Part shown: positions 10,420 through 33,949 of the stretch, piece after piece
Layout of the letters: each line of letters starts with the position of its first letter
How positions within the stretch are numbered: position 1 is the stretch's first letter
From: Candidatus Gastranaerophilales bacterium
GTDB lineage: Bacteria > Cyanobacteriota > Vampirovibrionia > Gastranaerophilales > Gastranaerophilaceae
NCBI GenBank assembly: GCA_944326015.1
Contig: CALVCJ010000017.1
Location: forward strand, 1 to 35,057
Direction: 5' to 3'
Length of the DNA: 35,057 nucleotides
The notes under the pieces: generated by a model
The model's database searches: none
What the model saw: the letters and a program-made list of their open reading frames with translations, nothing else
Told to the model about the DNA's origin: nothing
Position numbers and translations under genes: made by a program

Positions 10420-10743
10420 ATGTCAAACGCTATGGATATTAATGACAGTAATTTTGAGCAGGAAGTTTTGAATTGTGAACAGCCTGTTGTAGTAGATTTT
10501 TGGGCACCCTGGTGCGGACCGTGCAGAAAACTCGGGCCTGTTTTGGATGAAATAGCAGGAGAATTTTCAGGTAAAGTTAAATTTGTTAAGGTAAATACTG
10601 ATGAAAATCTTAAAACAGCACAGGATTATTCTATCAGCGGGCTTCCAAGCCTTCTCGTTTTCAAAAATGGCAAAGCTCTAGAAAGACTTGTTGGTGTTAT
10701 GCCTAAATCAACGATTATATCTAATATTGAAAAACATTTATAA
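10420..10743 (+). CDS. trxA: Thioredoxin
   Basis: 107-residue cytosolic disulfide reductase. The active site WCGPC (31-35) is followed by the usual KLGP, Asp26 is buried as in classical thioredoxins, and the cis-proline is in SGLPSLLVF. It reduces protein disulfides with electrons from thioredoxin reductase. AAAGGAG lies upstream of the ATG and a good hairpin terminator follows, so it is a single-gene unit, divergent from the exonuclease gene. Confidence 0.97.
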   Translation: MSNAMDINDSNFEQEVLNCEQPVVVDFWAPWCGPCRKLGPVLDEIAGEFSGKVKFVKVNTDENLKTAQDYSISGLPSLLVFKNGKALERLVGVMPKSTIISNIEKHL

Positions 10744-10798: not shown

Positions 10799-10839
10799 CA
10801 CATTTATTTTTGCTAAAAGCTGTTATGAATTAAAGATTT

Positions 10840-10881
10840 AAGCCTTTTATTCCGATAAAACAAGTAAAAGGAAAAAGGCTT
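10840..10881 (+). promoter_or_regulatory. Leader inverted repeat covering the ribosome binding site of the 1501-aa gene
   Basis: AAGCCTTTT (10840-10848) is perfectly complementary to AAAAGGCTT (10873-10881), with 24 bases between. The second arm contains the AAAGG closest to the ATG at 10885, and another AAAAGGA lies in the loop. If transcribed, the hairpin would partly hide the start site, so it may tune translation. No ligand or regulator is known to me. Confidence 0.4.
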
Positions 10882-10884
10882 ATC

Positions 10885-13800
10885 ATGAAAGTTGACAGCG
10901 TACCAAACAAATATGAAATATTCCAGGATTATTATCTGGATGTAAACGGAGAGGAAATCAGCTACTCCGAAGCTTTAGCGCTGTATAAAAACTTGAATGA
11001 AGAAGAACGCAACGATTTTGAACAGTATTATAAAGATGAAACCGGTTATGAAATAATTGATGCAAACGGCTATTCATTCGGTGAAAACGCCTCTGAAAAA
11101 AATAACATAAACAAAGCTAATATAATAACAAAATACAATATAGAAGCTTATGCAAAGAAAAATGGGCTCGTTCTTGATCCTATATGGTCGCAATATTCTG
11201 CTGAAGAAATTTTACAAATGGCAGATAATGGTGTTAATATTCCACAAGAAATTCTTGATATAGCTCACACAATTCAACAGCAAACCGCATCAAACTACGA
11301 AACAACAGGAAAAGATGAAGAAACAAACACTGAAGAAACAACCGAGAAAGAACCATTCTTAGAGCTGATACCTAAAGCTGAAAAGAAAATAGAAAAATGC
11401 GAAGAAAATAATGAAAAAATCAGTGATGAAATAGAAAGTATACTCCCCGAAACTCAAAAACAAGAAAAAAGTCTAGCTGACAGGTTAAAAAAACAGAGAA
11501 ATACATTAGATGAGTATGAGGGAAATATACGAGAATGGTCTAAATTACAAGATAAAGTTAATAATGGTGAAGCTCTGTCAAGCACAGAAGCACGACGTTA
11601 TGCAGAGATTACCGGCATGCTTGAAGATAAAAACTCAAATTCAGATGATTTTCAAATTGATAAAACAGAAATTTCTAGATCGTTAAATAAGATTAATATT
11701 CTGGCTGTGCTAGGTGAAGAACTTGCCAATGAAACAATAGAAATAGGTGATACTCTTATCGATTATACTTCACAAGAAAATTATAAAACAACAAGAAAAA
11801 CAACATCTCAGCAAATAGGCTTTTTGAGAAGTATAGTTGCAATGGCTCAGGGTAAAACATTAGCTGAAGAAGCAAGCAAAACTGGCAATAATACAAAAGA
11901 ATACACCGAAGAAACAACTAATTCTGTAAACGATATTGCATCGCTTCTGGGAATAGAAAGCAGCATTGCAAACAATGAGTCCAATGCTGAACCTTCTGCA
12001 GAACAAAAAACTCCTGAAGAAAATTCTGTTGAGGAATCGGCTAAACAAACTGCAAAAACAGGACAGGCTCAGGGAAATATCCCTGTTGATAATGAGAAAA
12101 CAGAGCAGTCTCTGGCATTACAACAATCTAATGATACACAGGAAGAAGATTTTATAATAACTGATGAGAATGTAAATACTTTGATAGAAGAATCAGGTAT
12201 AATTAATTCAGATCTCATAGAACAAATAAAATATGCATTCACTTCAACTAAAACCGCTAAAAGTGACAGATTGTTTGCAAAATTTGTTGACAAAAAAATA
12301 TCCGCATTGGTTAAAAAATTTCAGGAAGAAGAAACAAGACGACAAGATGTGATTAAAAATAAAGAGCAGGAAAATAATAAAGCTAAAAGTGATATTGAAG
12401 ATTTAACCGGAAAATCATCCGACGAAATTGAAGAAGAATTAAACAGCCAAAATTCACAAGATAATTCTAATGAATATATGGACGATTCTTCAAAAAATAA
12501 AGTAAGACAACGTAAACAAACAATTTCTGATAACAATAAAGAAATTATTGCTCTTAATACTGAATCTGGACAGGCAATTGAAGAATTTAAAAATAACACA
12601 AAATCTGAACAAAACAGATTAAATAAATCAATACCTGAAGAAACTGAAAATTTAAGCTCAAATAACAAATATCTTAATGAAACAATACCGTACTATAAGG
12701 AAAGACTCAGTTTTGCTCAAAACAGCGGCATAACATTAAGTAAAATGGGGCGCTATCGTGTAACTGTCGGTTTTGAACAGCTCGCAAGCTTTCAGATTAA
12801 AAAAGGTCTAAATAACATCAAAAAAGGAAGAACAAGCGTTACTATAGGTAATGAAGCAGAAGATATTGCAAGAAAACCGTTTATAAAGATAGCGGAAAAA
12901 AGTACAAAAAATGCTATTTCAACAAATGATGAAGCATTAACGGCTTTAAGCGCTCTGAATACAAAAATAGTTTCCGTTACAGGAGAAGATACCGCGGCTC
13001 CTGCTTCCACTACTGAAACTGGAACTTCTGAAGTAACTGATAACGACACCGAACAAAACGAAGCTCAATCTGGTAACGTACAAAAGCCTGCTGCTGGTGA
13101 ATATGAAACAGAACTTTCACCTACTTCATCTCAATCGGATACACCTGTAACAGCCATGCCAGTACAGGCTGAAACAAGATCTGCTACAACAAATACCAAC
13201 CCTGCTGAAAGCTCAGATGAAGAATCTGTCCAATCACCTGCAGAAAAAGTTGAAGAAACTGTTGAAAAGCCACAAGCAGATGCAATTGAAGAAGAAAAAA
13301 CAGATAATTCAAAAACCGATAACACTCAAAAAATTGACGAAGAAAAAGATACCGAAAAAACTCTAAATACCGCTCAATCTGAAAGCAGTTCCGGAACTTC
13401 TTCCGAAGAGGAAGAAATAACAACCGATGAGGCACAAGATAGCGTTGATGACGCAAAAAGCAACGCTAAAGATGACGGAAAAGAATCTGAAGACACAAAA
13501 AAAGATACTGAAAAAACAACCAAAGAGCTTGAAAAAGAAACTAAACAGCTTGTAAAGCTCATGAAAAAAGACGAAAAAGAAATCCTTAAAAGTACTAAAG
13601 AGTCTGCAGAAGCTGCAAAAAAACAGGAAGAAATTTTAAATGAATTTGAAACTCTTGTTAATGAAAATGAACAATTAATATCTGAAGATGAAAACAAACA
13701 GAATAGCCAGCCTGTTCAGTCTGCAGCTCCACAGAGTCAAGATAATAGCAGCGGAATGCAGCAAACTACAGCTATGGGCGTTGCTGCAATGGCTATTGGA

Positions 13801-15390
13801 GGCGGTCAGCAAAATTCAAATGCAGATAAAATTGCAAGTAATGACCAGAGAATAAATGAACTTGGTATATCATTCCAAACTTATGGAAGAAAAATAGAAA
13901 AACACAGAACAAAACTTGTTGCTATACAAAAAACTACAAAAACACGTCAGAAAAAATACAATAAAAAAACAGACCTTATTGAACAAAAAAATAAAGAAGT
14001 AGAAGAAAAAGAAAATGCAAAACAAAAAAGACTTCAAACACAATTAGGTGCTGTCGGCATAGCAGAAAATGTATTTCAAATCACATTGTCCACCGGTCAG
14101 ATAATGTGTATGGTAGTATTACCACCCTGGATTCCGGCTGCTGGAGCAATAATGGTTACGGTCGGTCAGTACGGCGTTTTGGCCTGCGGCGTGACAAAAG
14201 GCGTAATAAATATAGCAAATGGTAATTTAACAGCAGGTTTAATTGCCATAGGCCAATCAGCAATATCTCTTGCAACAGGAGGATCAAATATTACTCAGGG
14301 TGCAGGTGGAGTATTAACTGCTGTAAGCGCAGGCTTAAATATTGTATCTTCATCTGCTGACCTTGTTAATAATACAAGAGCCGTTCAGGGTAAAGAAGCC
14401 AGCGGAGTTTTCAGTAAAATTTCAACAATATCCGGTGTTGCTTCTTCTTTGACTAATTCTGCCGCAACGATTAGCAATTTAGGTCAAAACGGTACATCAA
14501 CATTCGGAAAAGCAATGAAAATTGCAAGTGTTGCAGGTACGGCAATGTCTTCGGCAAGCCAGTTGATGAGTGAATTCGGTGCAGAAGGCGGAGCAGCAAA
14601 TATTCTCGGAATTATCGGCGGAGCAGTCAGCACAATGTCGGCAATCGGTATGATCGCTGATAAAAAATTCAGTAATGCTTCTGAAAAAAATAAAGAAAAT
14701 CAGGAAAAAACAGAAGCTTCTGAAAAGAATAAAGAAAATTCAGATAAAACAGAAGTTAAAGAGGATAATAAAACAGGTCAAGACAAAAATGATGTTGACA
14801 AAAATAATAAAGAAAGTTTGGATAAAACTGATAGCCCAGAAAATAATGAAGAAAACCAAATCAAAACTGTTGCTGAAAATAACGTAGAAAATGCAGAAAG
14901 CACAGATAAAAAAGTAGAAAATACAAACAATGATAAGTTACAAAGAAATGATTTAGACAATAATACAGACAACGCACCTACCACCTCTGAATCTAATGAG
15001 TCAAAACCAACACGGGATCCAAATGCTCCTATTGAAGACAAACCTGTAAGCCCGTCTGAAATCGCAAAAGGATCTAATGTGGATGCCTTAACTGCTGATG
15101 CACAACAAAAGATGGCTGTTCAATCAGCTCAAATTAAAAAGGAACAAAATCAGCAAATTGAAACTCAAATCAGAAAAGAAAACAGAAAAGAATCCTGGTC
15201 AAATTTCACAGAGGCAATAAGCGGTATTGCATCAACAGGCGCTTCGTTCTTAGGATCCGGCTCAAATGAACAGCAACAGAAAAAGAAAACTGCTCCACGC
15301 GGACGTTTAACAAAACGCGCAAAAGAAATCATAGAAAAAAATAATCGAAGAATCGCAGCACTTTCAAGAATGGGTTATAATTTGGCATAA
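10885..15390 (+). CDS. Very large coiled-coil / hydrophobic-segment protein of unknown function (1501 aa)
   Basis: I do not recognise a family. There is no signal peptide. The order is: a mixed N-terminal region (1-120); helical coiled-coil segments (about 160-230, 470-650); Ser/Thr/Glu-rich low-complexity linkers (about 340-430 and 700-870); another Lys/Glu coiled coil (about 870-940 and 1000-1050); a Gly/Ala/Ser-rich hydrophobic block (about 1053-1260) long enough for several membrane-spanning helices; six tandem 13-residue repeats (1266-1343); and a basic C-terminus with RGRLTKRAKEII. Coiled coils flanking a hydrophobic block recall type III secretion translocators and tape-measure proteins, but no secretion or phage genes are nearby. 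Base composition fits its neighbours. It has its own leader and terminators on both sides, so it is monocistronic. A structural or exported surface role is inference. Confidence 0.85.
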   Translation: MKVDSVPNKYEIFQDYYLDVNGEEISYSEALALYKNLNEEERNDFEQYYKDETGYEIIDANGYSFGENASEKNNINKANIITKYNIEAYAKKNGLVLDPIWSQYSAEEILQMADNGVNIPQEILDIAHTIQQQTASNYETTGKDEETNTEETTEKEPFLELIPKAEKKIEKCEENNEKISDEIESILPETQKQEKSLADRLKKQRNTLDEYEGNIREWSKLQDKVNNGEALSSTEARRYAEITGMLEDKNSNSDDFQIDKTEISRSLNKINILAVLGEELANETIEIGDTLIDYTSQENYKTTRKTTSQQIGFLRSIVAMAQGKTLAEEASKTGNNTKEYTEETTNSVNDIASLLGIESSIANNESNAEPSAEQKTPEENSVEESAKQTAKTGQAQGNIPVDNEKTEQSLALQQSNDTQEEDFIITDENVNTLIEESGIINSDLIEQIKYAFTSTKTAKSDRLFAKFVDKKISALVKKFQEEETRRQDVIKNKEQENNKAKSDIEDLTGKSSDEIEEELNSQNSQDNSNEYMDDSSKNKVRQRKQTISDNNKEIIALNTESGQAIEEFKNNTKSEQNRLNKSIPEETENLSSNNKYLNETIPYYKERLSFAQNSGITLSKMGRYRVTVGFEQLASFQIKKGLNNIKKGRTSVTIGNEAEDIARKPFIKIAEKSTKNAISTNDEALTALSALNTKIVSVTGEDTAAPASTTETGTSEVTDNDTEQNEAQSGNVQKPAAGEYETELSPTSSQSDTPVTAMPVQAETRSATTNTNPAESSDEESVQSPAEKVEETVEKPQADAIEEEKTDNSKTDNTQKIDEEKDTEKTLNTAQSESSSGTSSEEEEITTDEAQDSVDDAKSNAKDDGKESEDTKKDTEKTTKELEKETKQLVKLMKKDEKEILKSTKESAEAAKKQEEILNEFETLVNENEQLISEDENKQNSQPVQSAAPQSQDNSSGMQQTTAMGVAAMAIGGGQQNSNADKIASNDQRINELGISFQTYGRKIEKHRTKLVAIQKTTKTRQKKYNKKTDLIEQKNKEVEEKENAKQKRLQTQLGAVGIAENVFQITLSTGQIMCMVVLPPWIPAAGAIMVTVGQYGVLACGVTKGVINIANGNLTAGLIAIGQSAISLATGGSNITQGAGGVLTAVSAGLNIVSSSADLVNNTRAVQGKEASGVFSKISTISGVASSLTNSAATISNLGQNGTSTFGKAMKIASVAGTAMSSASQLMSEFGAEGGAANILGIIGGAVSTMSAIGMIADKKFSNASEKNKENQEKTEASEKNKENSDKTEVKEDNKTGQDKNDVDKNNKESLDKTDSPENNEENQIKTVAENNVENAESTDKKVENTNNDKLQRNDLDNNTDNAPTTSESNESKPTRDPNAPIEDKPVSPSEIAKGSNVDALTADAQQKMAVQSAQIKKEQNQQIETQIRKENRKESWSNFTEAISGIASTGASFLGSGSNEQQQKKKTAPRGRLTKRAKEIIEKNNRRIAALSRMGYNLA
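14680..14913 (+). repeat. Six tandem 39-bp units encoding 13-residue repeats
   Basis: Inside the 1501-aa gene, six in-frame units of exactly 39 bases start at 14680, 14719, 14758, 14797, 14836 and 14875. The first two encode SEKNKENQEKTEA and SEKNKENSDKTEV; the following four are increasingly diverged (KEDNKTGQDKNDV, DKNNKESLDKTDS and so on). The period is constant with no insertions, indicating expansion by tandem duplication followed by divergence. Confidence 0.85.
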
Positions 15391-15424
15391 AAAAGACGGT
15401 TATAAATTTACATAACCGTCTTTT
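15391..15424. terminator. Bidirectional terminator between the 1501-aa gene and the GH13 gene
   Basis: AAAAGACGGTTAT and ATAACCGTCTTTT form a perfect 13-bp stem with an 8-base loop, with A-rich and T-rich flanks. It begins at the stop codon of the plus-strand gene and lies 6 bases beyond the stop of the minus-strand gene, serving both. Confidence 0.88.
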
Positions 15425-15430
15425 CTTTAT

Positions 15431-16978
15431 TTACTTTATTTCCAGATCATTTACAAAAAGTACAATTGTTTCACCTGCTTTTAATGTTGTTTTAATTGTA
15501 TTGTGTTCTGACACCGGAATACTGTCAATTTTCACGGGTATAATTATATTTTCTTTTTCAAGTTTTGGGACATAAACTGTTGTATCCGTATTTTTTCTAA
15601 AGTTTAAATTTCCCATAACAATAACAGTTTTACCGCCATAGCTCAAAGCATATGCAAATACCGAAGGTGATGTTGATTTTAGCGGAATAAATTGTCCGTT
15701 GTTTATTATAGGTGAGATTTCTCGTTTAAATCCGTTTGCAAATATAAATGTTTCAAGCAGTCTGTCATTTTTTCCGCCGGGCTGTCTTGAAAAGTTAAAT
15801 ATATCAATTTTGCCACGGTGTACAAAGTAATAATCATCATCAGTGTATGTTTTGAAAGCTTCCTTGTTTGCCCACATATAAATATAGTTATCTCCCGTAT
15901 CAAATCCGTCAACAAAATAAGAATTTAAAGGCAGAGTCGCATTAAGCCATATAATCATCTCACTAAACTTGTTGCCGTTTATTAAAACAGGGCTCATTTC
16001 ATCATGAGTTGTGAAACTTCCGATTACACTCTTGGGATCAGCAAATTTTGAAATATTTGAATTTGTCTGTAAAATTTGATTTATAAGCTCTTTACCTGTT
16101 TTATAATTTTTCAGATTAAAAAAGCTTCCGTAATATCCGTCAAATCCTGCTTCCAAAAGTTTATTATAAGGTGTGAATACTGCATATTCAGATACAGGTT
16201 CATTCCAGCTTTCTGAAGCTTCTGCGAGCCACAAAAACTGCGGATCTTTGCTTCTTGAATAACTTATTAAATCTTTCCAAAATTTAGCAGGTTTATTTGT
16301 AGCCACATCGGCTCTAATACCGTCAGCTCCTAATTCCATTACCATATCAACGAATTCTTTATAAAGGTTATAAACATCTCTATTTACTGATGTTTCAGAA
16401 CCTGCATTGAAAAGTCTTACATCTGTCCAATCAGCAGGGACAACAGGCTGACCAGATTTATCTTTCGTAAAGAACTCAGGACGTTTCATATATAAATCAT
16501 ATGATCCGCAGGAAGGTAAATCAACAATAATACGAATGTTTCTTTTATGCGCCTCATTTATAAATTTTTTAGCCTGAGCTTCACCTGAAAGTGCACTTTG
16601 TGAACTGACAATCTGCGGATTTAGGGTATTGAAACTTGATGCAGCGTATAACGAACCTGCTGTACCAAGAGCTTTTGTTTTACCAACCGGTGTTATCGGC
16701 ATTATGTGTAGCGTATTAATTCCTTTTTGTCTAATTTCGTCAAGTTTTGTAATGGCATTTAGAAAAGTTCCGCTTTCCTCACCTTCATCAAATTCTATAA
16801 TTCCATTTTTGTTAATATCCTGTGCAGCAAATGTTCTCAGGTTTATTTCATAGATAATGGCTGAATGTTTTAAAAACATTTTCCTTAAATCATTAACCCA
16901 AACGTCCGCACTGTATGCGTATTGAATAGTAAATATTAATATTGCTAAAGATAAAACTAATCTTTTTAAAACCAGCAT
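15431..16978 (-). CDS. Secreted GH13 (alpha-amylase family) glycoside hydrolase with EF-hand-like loop (515 aa)
   Basis: A signal peptide (Lys-Arg, hydrophobic stretch, cleavage near AYS-AD) sends it to the periplasm or outside. The catalytic GH13 regions are present: GIRAD with nucleophile Asp224, LWLAEA with acid/base Glu253, and FTTHD with His325-Asp326. Region I is unusual: DLPSCG replaces the common DxVxNH. Residues 54-65 (D-x-N-x-N-G-I-I-E-F-D-E) match a full EF-hand calcium loop. The last ~100 residues look like the beta-rich domain C. An AAGGGGG site lies just before the ATG. It is divergent from a ROK sugar kinase, suggesting extracellular alpha-glucan breakdown followed by phosphorylation of released glucose. 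Exact specificity cannot be told. Confidence 0.9.
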   Translation of the reverse strand: MLVLKRLVLSLAILIFTIQYAYSADVWVNDLRKMFLKHSAIIYEINLRTFAAQDINKNGIIEFDEGEESGTFLNAITKLDEIRQKGINTLHIMPITPVGKTKALGTAGSLYAASSFNTLNPQIVSSQSALSGEAQAKKFINEAHKRNIRIIVDLPSCGSYDLYMKRPEFFTKDKSGQPVVPADWTDVRLFNAGSETSVNRDVYNLYKEFVDMVMELGADGIRADVATNKPAKFWKDLISYSRSKDPQFLWLAEASESWNEPVSEYAVFTPYNKLLEAGFDGYYGSFFNLKNYKTGKELINQILQTNSNISKFADPKSVIGSFTTHDEMSPVLINGNKFSEMIIWLNATLPLNSYFVDGFDTGDNYIYMWANKEAFKTYTDDDYYFVHRGKIDIFNFSRQPGGKNDRLLETFIFANGFKREISPIINNGQFIPLKSTSPSVFAYALSYGGKTVIVMGNLNFRKNTDTTVYVPKLEKENIIIPVKIDSIPVSEHNTIKTTLKAGETIVLFVNDLEIK

Positions 16979-26828: not shown

Positions 26829-26950
26829 TATAAGTGAAATTAAGCCAAAAATTTGTTTTAAAAGCCTGTTATATCATGCAATTTCCGCTAATAATTTTTT
26901 TTTATATAGTTAAGGGGAATTTAAAAAATTTCACAGGGGATAAAGGAAAG

Positions 26951-28345
26951 ATGTTTTACACTATGCCAATGTTAAACAACTATATGATGCCAAATCTTCC
27001 GGCGTATTGGTCTCTAGGAAATCGTCACTTTGTAACCAATTTTGCAGGATCATACCAGCACGGTTTATATCCGGATAGTCACTCTCCGTTTGTTTATTCA
27101 TTGGCACAAGGTTTTCAAAACCCTAATCATATAAGTATGTGGAATCCTTTACTAATTGGATTTAATACTGGTGAAGGAATGACAACTAATCCCGCATTGA
27201 CGGCAGCAGGAAATCAGTCTGCATATAATGCAGGTCTGGCTTATGCAGCTAAATCGCGTATAAGCTCTCTTATATCCACACTTACCAGTTACGAATCACA
27301 GATAAAAAATATAATAAAGTCAGGTAAACTAGATGAAGCTCAGGAACAGAGATTACAGACAATTCTTGATGAAATTGCAGCATTAAAAGAGCATATATCT
27401 AACATGTCAGGAGAACAAATCAGTATAGAAACTATAGAAGCTGCTCAGGGTGTAGTTATTGAATTAATCAAGAAAGCATCCGAAACTGCACAGGGAATTA
27501 TACAAGAATTACAAGAAGCTGCACAGGAAGAGGCGGACAACGTCTCTGGAGCAGGAAGCAGCGATGGTACAGATGATATTAGCGGTATCAGTGACGTTGA
27601 TGAGTCCGGAGCAACAACCAATCCGGAAATAAAAGATGAAGCTGCAGGTATAGTCGGGCTAATTTACGATTCCGTTGCAGGCCCGGGAACAAAAAATTCA
27701 CAGTTAAAACAAACTATAGCACAAATTAACTGTGATAATATTACTGCAGTTTTTGATGCTTGGAATGAAAATTATAAAGATAATGAAGGAAGCCTTGTCA
27801 AAAGAATATATGATGATGAATACTGGATAAACGGCGGTAATGACTATGTAAAACATATGGTTGATGCTTTTGAAGAAAAAGCCCGCGAACTCGGTATTTA
27901 TCCAAGATTAATCAAGGAATTTACAACTGTAAATTCCGAATTAACAGCATTCTGGAATACTAGTGAAAGAAAAGTATCTGACGCAATGGATAAAATTCAT
28001 CAGACTATAAAACAAACTCAAGCTGACAAATTCAGTGAAGCAAAGGCTGAAAGAGACAGACAAAAAGCTGAAGCAGAAGCAAGAAAAGCTGAAGCTCAAA
28101 GAAAAGAAGCAGAACGGATTGCAATGAAAAAATCCCAATTTGTAGCTGATATGCGAGAAATATTGGGCGATGACAAAGCTCAAGTATCAGAAGACGTTAG
28201 ATATGAAAATAATACATTTGTTATAAGAATTAAAGGGAAAAATTATTATGGTAAAAATTACTTAGAACTTGCAAAAGCCATTGAAAAATCAGGATACGAT
28301 CCGGCTAAATACTTAAAAAAGCAGACTGCAACAGCTATTGCATAA
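26951..28345 (+). CDS. Protein of unknown function with coiled coil and one annexin-like motif (465 aa)
   Basis: No family recognised with certainty. I place the start at ATG 26951 behind AAAGGA; a longer frame from 26834 would add a Phe/Ile-rich stretch that looks non-coding. The N-terminal ~90 residues are rich in Asn, Pro, Tyr and Met. Then come a helical region (about 95-190), an acidic Gly/Ser linker (about 195-225), and a segment starting GPGTKNSQLKQTIAQINCDN (244-263) that recalls an annexin repeat (G-x-G-T, helix, acidic residue about 40 later). After that follow a Lys/Glu/Ala coiled coil (about 365-400) and a compact C-terminus with VIRIKGKNYYGKNY. No signal peptide. A terminator follows. 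Function unknown; exported by a non-Sec route is possible but unproved. Confidence 0.75.
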   Translation: MFYTMPMLNNYMMPNLPAYWSLGNRHFVTNFAGSYQHGLYPDSHSPFVYSLAQGFQNPNHISMWNPLLIGFNTGEGMTTNPALTAAGNQSAYNAGLAYAAKSRISSLISTLTSYESQIKNIIKSGKLDEAQEQRLQTILDEIAALKEHISNMSGEQISIETIEAAQGVVIELIKKASETAQGIIQELQEAAQEEADNVSGAGSSDGTDDISGISDVDESGATTNPEIKDEAAGIVGLIYDSVAGPGTKNSQLKQTIAQINCDNITAVFDAWNENYKDNEGSLVKRIYDDEYWINGGNDYVKHMVDAFEEKARELGIYPRLIKEFTTVNSELTAFWNTSERKVSDAMDKIHQTIKQTQADKFSEAKAERDRQKAEAEARKAEAQRKEAERIAMKKSQFVADMREILGDDKAQVSEDVRYENNTFVIRIKGKNYYGKNYLELAKAIEKSGYDPAKYLKKQTATAIA

Positions 28346-30244: not shown

Positions 30245-30739
30245 ATGGTAAAAATCAACGCAGCTCAGGGAATAGAATTTAGTGCACCCGCAACAAGTGT
30301 TAATGCCAGCGAAAACAATGGTGTTAATATAAGTTTCAACTATGGCGGAAACAGTGAAGATGTGGTTAATCAGGCTACAACTAAAAAAAATGTGGAATAT
30401 ACTCTAAAAGCAAACAAAGAAAACATTGAATTACACCAACCCTGGATAGGTTCAAATTACATTACCTTTAAAGGTAATGGTAAGATGACGTATGGCGAAT
30501 TACGACATATCCTTGGAATTCCACCAAAAGTTTTGAGTGAAACAAATGGGAAAAAATTAACAGATAATCAAATTGTAAAAGAAACAAAAATTTATCTAGA
30601 TGATATAGGCTGGTACGAAACAATCCCGCAAAGTTCCGAAGAAGCCAGTGATATAAGAGCACAAAGACGATATGGAAATCACTATGCTGGATATTCAAGA
30701 GCATTATCGAATGAAGAAATTCTTAAACAATTAAAATAG
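30245..30739 (+). CDS. Small protein of unknown function (164 aa)
   Basis: No family recognised. The N-terminal ~55 residues are rich in Asn, Ser and Val (MVKINAAQGIEFSAPATSVN) and probably flexible. The rest is a mixed alpha/beta stretch with YGELRHILGIPPKVL, IYLDDIGWYE and an Arg/Tyr-rich end. No signal peptide or membrane helix. GGAG stands nine bases before the ATG. The opening Met-Val-x-Ile-Asn is shared with the gene at 33425 (MVDINIST), which may mean a common N-terminal signal, although two cases are not proof. A strong terminator follows, so it is a single-gene unit. Confidence 0.72.
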   Translation: MVKINAAQGIEFSAPATSVNASENNGVNISFNYGGNSEDVVNQATTKKNVEYTLKANKENIELHQPWIGSNYITFKGNGKMTYGELRHILGIPPKVLSETNGKKLTDNQIVKETKIYLDDIGWYETIPQSSEEASDIRAQRRYGNHYAGYSRALSNEEILKQLK

Positions 30740-33424: not shown

Positions 33425-33949
33425 ATGGTAGATATAAATATTTCAACAAATACAACAATACCGTTTATGCCTGCTGCAACAGGTAAAACTGCTGACGGCA
33501 GGATTATATATGAAACAAAAGACGCAAAAACAGGTAAAGTAACTAAATTTTCAATCCCCGAAGAAAATCAGGACAAATTTGAAAAAATTGTTCAGGAAGT
33601 TCAGAAAAAATACGGAAAATATAACACAAACCCCGAAAAGAAAGTCGCACAGGCTGCACATCTGGCAACACTTGGCGGGGCAATAGCCGGCGGAGCATTA
33701 ACAGCATCACTTATAAAAACAAAATCAAAAATGGGTAAATTTACTAAAACTCTCGCAGGTGCATTAGGCGGTGTGGTCGCTGCAAGCTTGGCTTTGACAG
33801 GAGCAATATTGTACCCGATAATAAAATACACTAAAGAATTGAAAAATTTAGGATATAAACCTTTGGATGAGTCTGTTGCTGAAATTAAACCGGGGAAAAA
33901 AGAAGTTCAAAAAGAAAATAAAGAGCATACTGAAAATAAAGTTGTTTAA
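33425..33949 (+). CDS. Protein of unknown function with Gly/Ala-rich membrane hairpin (174 aa)
   Basis: No family recognised. A polar N-terminal region (MVDINISTNTTIPF, then a basic stretch with YETKDAKTGKVTKF) is followed by a hydrophobic Gly/Ala-rich segment (about 78-98), a short basic turn (KTKSKMGKFTKT), a second hydrophobic helix (about 108-138), and a Lys/Glu-rich tail. Two membrane helices in a hairpin are likely; the glycine-rich pattern is like the hydrophobic block of the 1501-aa protein but not clearly homologous. There is no signal peptide. The ribosome binding site is unclear. Confidence 0.68.
   Translation: MVDINISTNTTIPFMPAATGKTADGRIIYETKDAKTGKVTKFSIPEENQDKFEKIVQEVQKKYGKYNTNPEKKVAQAAHLATLGGAIAGGALTASLIKTKSKMGKFTKTLAGALGGVVAASLALTGAILYPIIKYTKELKNLGYKPLDESVAEIKPGKKEVQKENKEHTENKVV

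What the first reader, a model, noticed from the sequence alone, without database searches (positions are those of the whole stretch)
10885..15390. Giant coiled-coil protein with a 200-residue hydrophobic block and no signal peptide
The protein has coiled coils, low-complexity linkers, a Gly/Ala-rich hydrophobic block (about 1053-1260), six 13-residue repeats and a basic tail. Coiled coil plus an internal hydrophobic block resembles type III translocators (IpaB/YopB) and tape-measure proteins, but nothing else of those systems is seen. It may be a lineage-specific exported or membrane-inserting structural protein.
Basis: partly seen in the sequence, partly recalled or inferred. Interest (0 to 1): 0.62.

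Follow-up and report, generated by a model that had tools for sequence, protein, structure and literature searches.

The report
Giant σ28-controlled coiled-coil protein
A huge, unnamed helical protein of non-photosynthetic gut cyanobacteria is switched on by a promoter of the type that normally drives flagellum genes, in bacteria that have no flagellum filament but do carry a second, overlooked flagellum-like secretion machine, so it is probably cargo or an outer part of that machine.

Summary
The ORF (10885-15390 +, 1501 aa, no signal peptide) is real, intact and present once in every genome of its genus (24/24; Candidatus Gastranaerophilales). Homologues of 444-2045 aa occur in 13 genera of one family, mostly between the same neighbours, and match no known family. 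The "hydrophobic block" is a Gly/Ala-rich, seven-residue-periodic helical hairpin of moderate hydrophobicity, not conserved transmembrane segments. The protein carries two copies of a stalk-plus-hairpin module.

At 10829-10859 is a σ28 (FliA) flagellar-type promoter, TAAAG-N16-CCGATAA. It has identical spacing in 24 of 25 orthologues (the 25th has one mismatch) and precedes 11 of 17 homologues in other genera. These bacteria encode FliA but no flagellin. They retain a second flagellar-type secretion system that is order-wide and distinct from the flagellum; flagellated relatives carry both.

Best explanation: a late substrate or external part of that second type III system. Shown: gene, family, promoter, sigma factor, secretion apparatus. 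Inferred: export, and function outside the cell. Interest 0.62.

The parts
10829..10859 (+). σ28 (FliA/SigD-type) promoter, ATTAAAGATTTAAGCCTTTTATTCCGATAAA; TAAAG-N16-CCGATAA, ends 25 nt before the ATG
   Evidence: TAAAG-N16-CCGA[TC] with identical spacing in 24/25 orthologues, one mismatch in the 25th; score 28.3 against 18.0 for the next best site in 124 kb of the same genome
10885..15390 (+). the protein, 1501 aa, no signal peptide
10885..11964 (+). conserved N-terminal domain, residues 1-360 (helical; 54% mean column identity over 25 species)
   Evidence: found in 13 genera of one family
12154..12987 (+). module 1, residues 424-701: confident helical bundle ending in a Gly-heptad hairpin (G615, G622 / G648, G655 invariant)
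   Evidence: AlphaFold pLDDT mostly 80-96; profile match to the 588-aa paralogue E 1.5e-5
13426..14085 (+). module 2 stalk, residues 848-1067: two long helices
   Evidence: profile match of residues 845-1270 to the paralogue E 1.9e-31
14041..14664 (+). module 2 low-charge Gly/Ala/Ser/Thr-rich block, residues 1053-1260; heptad-periodic helical hairpin, moderate hydrophobicity
14674..14907 (+). 13-residue repeats, residues 1264-1341, in an unconserved linker
15292..15387 (+). basic C-terminal tail, residues 1470-1501; a similar tail ends the 588-aa paralogue of the same genome
   Evidence: likeness by eye only
15391..15424 (+). terminator-like hairpin between this gene and the convergent amylase-like gene
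10420..10743 (+). thioredoxin gene, conserved upstream neighbour (context, not a functional claim)
15431..16978 (-). amylase-like gene, conserved downstream neighbour in most genera (context only)

Best explanation
The protein is a late (class 3-like) product of a flagellar-type regulon. Its gene is transcribed by RNA polymerase carrying the σ28 factor FliA. Having no Sec signal, it would be exported through a second, non-motile, flagellar-type type III secretion system that the whole order keeps, taking the place that flagellin has as the late substrate in flagellated relatives. Outside the cell its stalk-and-hairpin modules would assemble into a helical structure, either at the tip of the rod or touching a partner's membrane. 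Shown here: the gene, its family, the promoter, the sigma gene, the secretion apparatus and the absence of flagellin. Inferred: FliA use of the promoter, export by this apparatus, and assembly or membrane contact outside the cell.
For: σ28 promoter with identical spacing upstream of 24/25 orthologues, one mismatch in the 25th, and of 11 of 17 homologues in other genera. Only 9 sites scored at least 14 in 1.07 Mb of other loci, 5 of them 16-55 nt before homologues. The same motif type precedes flagellin in 3 of the 12 flagellin loci scanned in flagellated relatives. FliA/WhiG sigma gene in the own genome, over the curated cut-off (239 against 190 bits), 3.6 kb from the rod operon. Second type III apparatus in the own genome: FHIPEP, FliH, FliF, FliE; FliR, FliQ, FliP, FliO, a single SctQ/FliN-type C-ring protein and FlgB/C/F/G-type rods; FliI ATPase. 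Distinct from the flagellum: FHIPEP types share 36-37% identity and split into two clades, each spanning families. Flagellin in none of the genus's genomes, 96 of 241 in the order. In a genus without this family the same promoter precedes a 959-aa signal-less coiled-coil gene next to the contiguous apparatus cluster. Very low Cys and His (0.20%, 0.13% against 1.29%, 1.64% in neighbouring enzymes).
Against: No secretion was tested. The gene is not linked to the apparatus genes in the window's genome. The second apparatus also exists in genera without this family, so it does not need this protein. σ28 can control non-exported proteins (chemoreceptors, c-di-GMP enzymes). 6 of 17 distant homologues lack a recognisable site, and no site was seen before the 588-aa paralogue. 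The exclusion between this family and flagellin may reflect a single event in one clade.
Confidence: 0.55

Rival explanations
1. A σ28-controlled protein that stays inside the cell: a cytoplasmic or inner-membrane-associated coiled-coil scaffold (for example organising the secretion apparatus or the pole) that is made with the apparatus but not exported.
For: Size and long coiled coils are typical of scaffolds; no conserved transmembrane segments; no demonstrated export; σ28 regulons also hold non-exported genes (E. coli map, PMC4183435).
Against: Cys and His content far below that of neighbouring enzymes; in flagellated relatives the same promoter type precedes exported flagellin; hypervariable low-complexity linkers and large length changes (444-2045 aa) are more usual for exposed proteins.
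Confidence: 0.27
2. A ClyA-like alpha-pore-forming protein: the helical module at 424-701 and its hairpin insert into a target membrane, with or without help of the type III apparatus.
For: Foldseek's best natural matches to the 424-701 bundle are MakA, AhlB, SmhB and ClyA (E 0.02-0.1); VIA Z about 10.5; module with low-charge helical hairpin, also found in another order.
Against: Designed helical bundles score as high (Z 11.1), and Z under 13 for helical bundles may mean only a common arrangement; no sequence match; rmsd 5-8 A.
Confidence: 0.1
3. A phage tape-measure or prophage structural protein.
For: Coiled coil plus hydrophobic block; the 588-aa paralogue has a sub-threshold PHROG tape-measure hit, E 0.075.
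Against: No relative in viral contigs; conserved housekeeping neighbours across genera; no tape-measure PHROG hit for this protein; σ28 promoter.
Confidence: 0.02
4. A decaying or chance ORF.
For: Low-complexity linkers; one homologue outside the genus is split by a stop (G073).
Against: 24/24 genomes of the genus carry it, without internal stops in the matches; invariant residues; conserved promoter.
Confidence: 0.01

Closest known systems
σ28-dependent non-flagellar substrates of the flagellar type III system (Campylobacter FlaC, FspA, Cia proteins; PMC2764114)
   Same: No Sec signal; flagellar-type export apparatus in the cell; flagellar regulon promoter (here the motif is shown; for the Campylobacter genes this rests on my own knowledge).
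   Different: Those use the motility flagellum and are small; this is 1501 aa, in a lineage without flagellin, with a separate second apparatus. Export is untested here.
Type III secretion major translocators (IpaB/SipB/YopB; Pfam SseC family)
   Same: Coiled-coil region followed by a low-charge helical region; no signal peptide; moderate hydrophobicity as reported for type III transmembrane substrates (PMC9993115).
   Different: No sequence match; 1501 aa against roughly 400-600 aa; no conserved pair of transmembrane segments; no adjacent chaperone gene; not encoded with the apparatus.
ClyA-family alpha-pore-forming toxins (ClyA, AhlB, SmhB, MakA, XaxA)
   Same: Predicted long-helix bundle of comparable shape for residues 424-701.
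   Different: Structural scores no better than designed helical bundles; no sequence relation; two modules inside one giant protein.
Flagellin (late σ28 substrate in flagellated Gastranaerophilales)
   Same: Same promoter type; occurs in genomes where this family is missing, and the reverse.
   Different: Unrelated sequence; this protein is far larger and lacks the flagellin domain.

Membership tests
σ28 (FliA) class 3 gene | TAAAG...CCGATAA promoter at the E. coli/Bacillus-like spacing | tested here: met
   24/25 orthologues at N16, one mismatch in the 25th; E. coli sites have N15 between the same bases (PMC4183435); one relative's flagellin site has N15
σ28 (FliA) class 3 gene | FliA-type sigma factor encoded in the genome | tested here: met
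   L160:2216-3043, TIGR02479 239.4 bits, cut-off 189.6
σ28 (FliA) class 3 gene | expression lost without FliA | not testable with these tools
   needs a reporter or mutant
substrate of a flagellar-type type III system | export apparatus in the genome | tested here: met
   FliE, FliF, FliH, FHIPEP, FliO/P/Q/R, rods, C-ring, FliI; FlhB was not searched for
substrate of a flagellar-type type III system | no Sec signal peptide | tested here: met
   no hydrophobic N-terminus in the orthologues
substrate of a flagellar-type type III system | secretion through the apparatus | not testable with these tools
   experiment needed
type III major translocator (SseC/IpaB) | sequence match to the family | tested here: not met
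   no such Pfam hit up to E 1 for the whole protein, nor for 23 members of its block or 12 paralogues up to E 0.1; no NCBIfam hit
type III major translocator (SseC/IpaB) | two conserved transmembrane segments | tested here: not met
   10 of the 23 orthologues that include the block have no 19-residue window above 1.6 there
type III major translocator (SseC/IpaB) | class II TPR chaperone gene next to it | tested here: not met
   neighbours are thioredoxin and amylase-like genes
ClyA-family alpha-pore-forming toxin | ClyA-like fold | tested here: inconclusive
   Foldseek E 0.02-0.1, VIA Z about 10.5, tied with designed bundles
phage tape-measure protein | PHROG tape-measure match or phage context | tested here: not met
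second apparatus as a type III system distinct from the flagellum | own export-gate clade and own C-ring, co-existing with a flagellum in some genomes | tested here: met
second apparatus as a type III system distinct from the flagellum | no flagellin in genomes that have only this apparatus | tested here: met
   no flagellin in the genus, FHIPEP type 2 in all its genomes searched
second apparatus as an injectisome | needle, secretin and translocon genes | not tested

The most novel reading that the evidence does not exclude
The gut lineage of non-photosynthetic cyanobacteria carries, order-wide, a second flagellar-type but non-motile type III secretion system that earlier work may have read as a degenerating flagellum. 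Its σ28 regulon has been re-used to make giant modular helical proteins as its late substrates or external fibre, giving these presumed harmless gut commensals a contact-dependent export device.
Probability: 0.4. Interest if true: 0.85.

Novelty: new variant of a known kind. Interest (0 to 1): 0.62.

Why it matters
Gastranaerophilales are common gut bacteria with few or no tools for study, and how they touch their host or neighbours is open. A conserved flagellar-type export apparatus without flagellin, plus a promoter-tagged giant candidate substrate, turns that question into simple tests. It would also change the reading of "partial flagella" in gut cyanobacteria, from decay to a separate machine kept across the order.

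Tried and rejected
Sequence families: Pfam, NCBIfam, PHROGs and PDB sequence searches gave nothing above noise. Viral contigs: no relatives.

Linkage of the 588-aa paralogue to the type III cluster (about 18-20 kb in many genomes) looked like support at first. It is mostly general synteny, and in G040, G085 and G173 the paralogue sits in other surroundings, so it is not used as evidence. The paralogue does not track the apparatus either: it is absent from most flagellated genera and all other families of the order.

Exclusion between this family and flagellin (one weak overlap, G204, in 241 genomes) is striking, but may be one loss and one gain in a single clade, so it is weighted low. A hairpin in the 5' leader of the window gene is not conserved. 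Conserved-glycine spacing of 7 in this protein alone is not significant (3 pairs, p 0.12); the heptad signal comes from hydrophobic residues and from the wider family. The AlphaFold model of residues 840-1501 is too poor (mean pLDDT 47) to search folds with.

Full report
What is there. The ORF at 10885-15390 encodes 1501 residues without a signal peptide. The window is contig C17 of a 1.99-Mb genome; its relatives in GTDB are Candidatus Gastranaerophilales MAGs. Every genome of the genus carries one orthologue, a few of them cut by contig ends (24 of 24). The gene sits between a thioredoxin and an amylase-like gene in most genera examined. Homologues of the N-terminal domain occur in 112 of 241 order genomes, in 13 genera of one family plus one weak hit, with lengths from 444 to 2045 aa in those read.

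Anatomy. Conservation is highest in residues 1-360, then in 424-700 and 845-1260; the linkers at 361-420, 700-840 and 1265-1440 are low-complexity and unconserved. The model of residues 1-720 is all-helical, with a confident bundle at 424-701. Residues 848-1067 are two long helices followed by the low-charge block. The block is heptad-periodic (hydrophobic residues at lag 7, z 7.3; glycine at lag 7 in the paralogues, z 8.2) and of moderate hydrophobicity. 10 of the 23 orthologues that include it have no window there that would count as transmembrane. Profile comparison shows that residues 845-1270 match a 588-aa paralogue of the same genome (E 1.9e-31), and that residues 420-700 match the same paralogue in the same order (E 1.5e-5), so the protein carries two related stalk-plus-hairpin modules. 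In other genera two module-2 copies stand in one protein (G133). The hairpin core (GxxMxxxGxAMxSNPFTAAAGAAL) recurs in ORFs of about 420-570 aa of another family of the class, outside the order.

What it is not. No Pfam, NCBIfam, PHROG or PDB sequence family matches. The best natural structural neighbours of the 424-701 bundle are ClyA-type pore formers, but designed bundles score as well, so this remains a lead.

The second type III system. FHIPEP is in all 241 order genomes, in two types. One scores about 870 bits and is the flagellar FlhA type; the other scores about 730, is 76-99% identical across the species compared, and is the only full-length one in this genus. The two types share 36-37% identity and form two clades with 100% support, each spanning several families. 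Flagellated genomes carry both. In the own genome the second system comprises FliE, FliF, an orphan in the SctK/FliG position, FliH and FHIPEP; FliR, FliQ, FliP, FliO and a single SctQ/FliN-type C-ring protein, with FlgB/C/F/G-type rods elsewhere; and a FliI ATPase. Flagellated genomes have FliM and FliN in addition to the third C-ring protein. In G121 the ATPase, gate, ring and rods are one contiguous cluster. Flagellin occurs in 96 of 241 genomes and in none of this genus. Di Rienzi et al. [quoted passage not shown] I found no paper describing a separate system.

The promoter. Comparing upstream DNA showed TAAAG-N16-CCGA[TC] with the same spacing in 24 of 25 orthologues, while the spacer itself is not conserved; the 25th has one mismatch. 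This is the σ28 consensus with one more spacer base than in E. coli (PMC4183435). In the window it is at 10829-10859, 25 nt before the ATG. In 124 kb of the same genome the next best site scores 18.0 against 28.3. In 1.07 Mb of other loci only nine sites reach 14; five are 16-55 nt before homologues of this gene in other genera, and further homologues bring the count to 11 of 17. Flagellin genes in flagellated relatives have the same motif type in 3 of 12 loci tried. A FliA/WhiG sigma factor lies 3.6 kb from the rod operon. In G121, a genus without this family, the motif stands 29 nt before a 959-aa signal-less coiled-coil gene beside the apparatus cluster.

How it most likely works. Step 1, transcription by FliA after the apparatus is built: motif shown, use inferred. 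Step 2, export without a Sec signal through the second apparatus: inferred; support comes from the regulon, the apparatus and a composition very poor in Cys and His. The eLife paper reports that the gut types lack a type I system, which narrows the routes (PMC3787301). Step 3, assembly or membrane contact outside: inferred from stalk and hairpin modules; type III transmembrane substrates are known to be only moderately hydrophobic (PMC9993115), which fits but does not prove it. Confidence: promoter type 0.9; late substrate of the second apparatus 0.55; membrane-inserting translocator 0.2.

Known or new. It works like a σ28-dependent flagellar-type substrate such as the exported non-flagellar proteins of Campylobacter (PMC2764114), but no homology to them was found. 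It fails the sequence and transmembrane tests for IpaB/YopB translocators. I call it a new variant of a known kind, with the regulon and the second apparatus as the parts most likely to interest specialists.

Noticed in passing
L089:4272-10432, L159:5739-9494, L160:6667-9156, G000:C22:15674-16966: Second flagellar-type type III apparatus in the window's genome, order-wide and separate from the flagellum.
   Followed up: partly
L195:14374-17253: 959-aa signal-less coiled-coil protein with a σ28 site 29 nt upstream, next to the contiguous apparatus cluster in a genus without the window's family.
   Followed up: partly
L206, - strand, site about 5.1 kb in from the far end: 498-aa protein with a σ28-like site 31 nt upstream, a DGT-repeat stretch and an annexin domain (Pfam E 1.5e-7).
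   Followed up: partly
L075:6447-8213: 588-aa paralogue with the same stalk-plus-hairpin module; no σ28 site found before it.
   Followed up: yes
L175:8198-9814, L177:8088-9341: Soluble-looking proteins from outside the order carrying the same SNPFTAAAGAAL hairpin core with Gly every seven residues.
   Followed up: partly
L089:15064-17955: Conserved set of signal-less proteins (108, 90, 272, 416 aa) near the apparatus in several genera; the 108- and 416-aa ones end alike (MIDKNIQSSF / VIDKNIESTF).
   Followed up: no
L075:8254-12663: Very large surface protein with haemagglutinin-like start and long D/S/T repeats, next to the paralogue.
   Followed up: no
window 33425-33949 and 30245-30739; L159:10786-11310; L081:379-762: Several signal-less proteins with similar short N-termini (often with an F-G or F-x-A element); 33425-33949 also has a Gly/Ala-rich hydrophobic stretch. 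Possible shared sorting signal.
   Followed up: no
window 26834-28345: 503-aa coiled-coil protein whose homologues lie inverted and closer to the giant gene in L032-L034.
   Followed up: no
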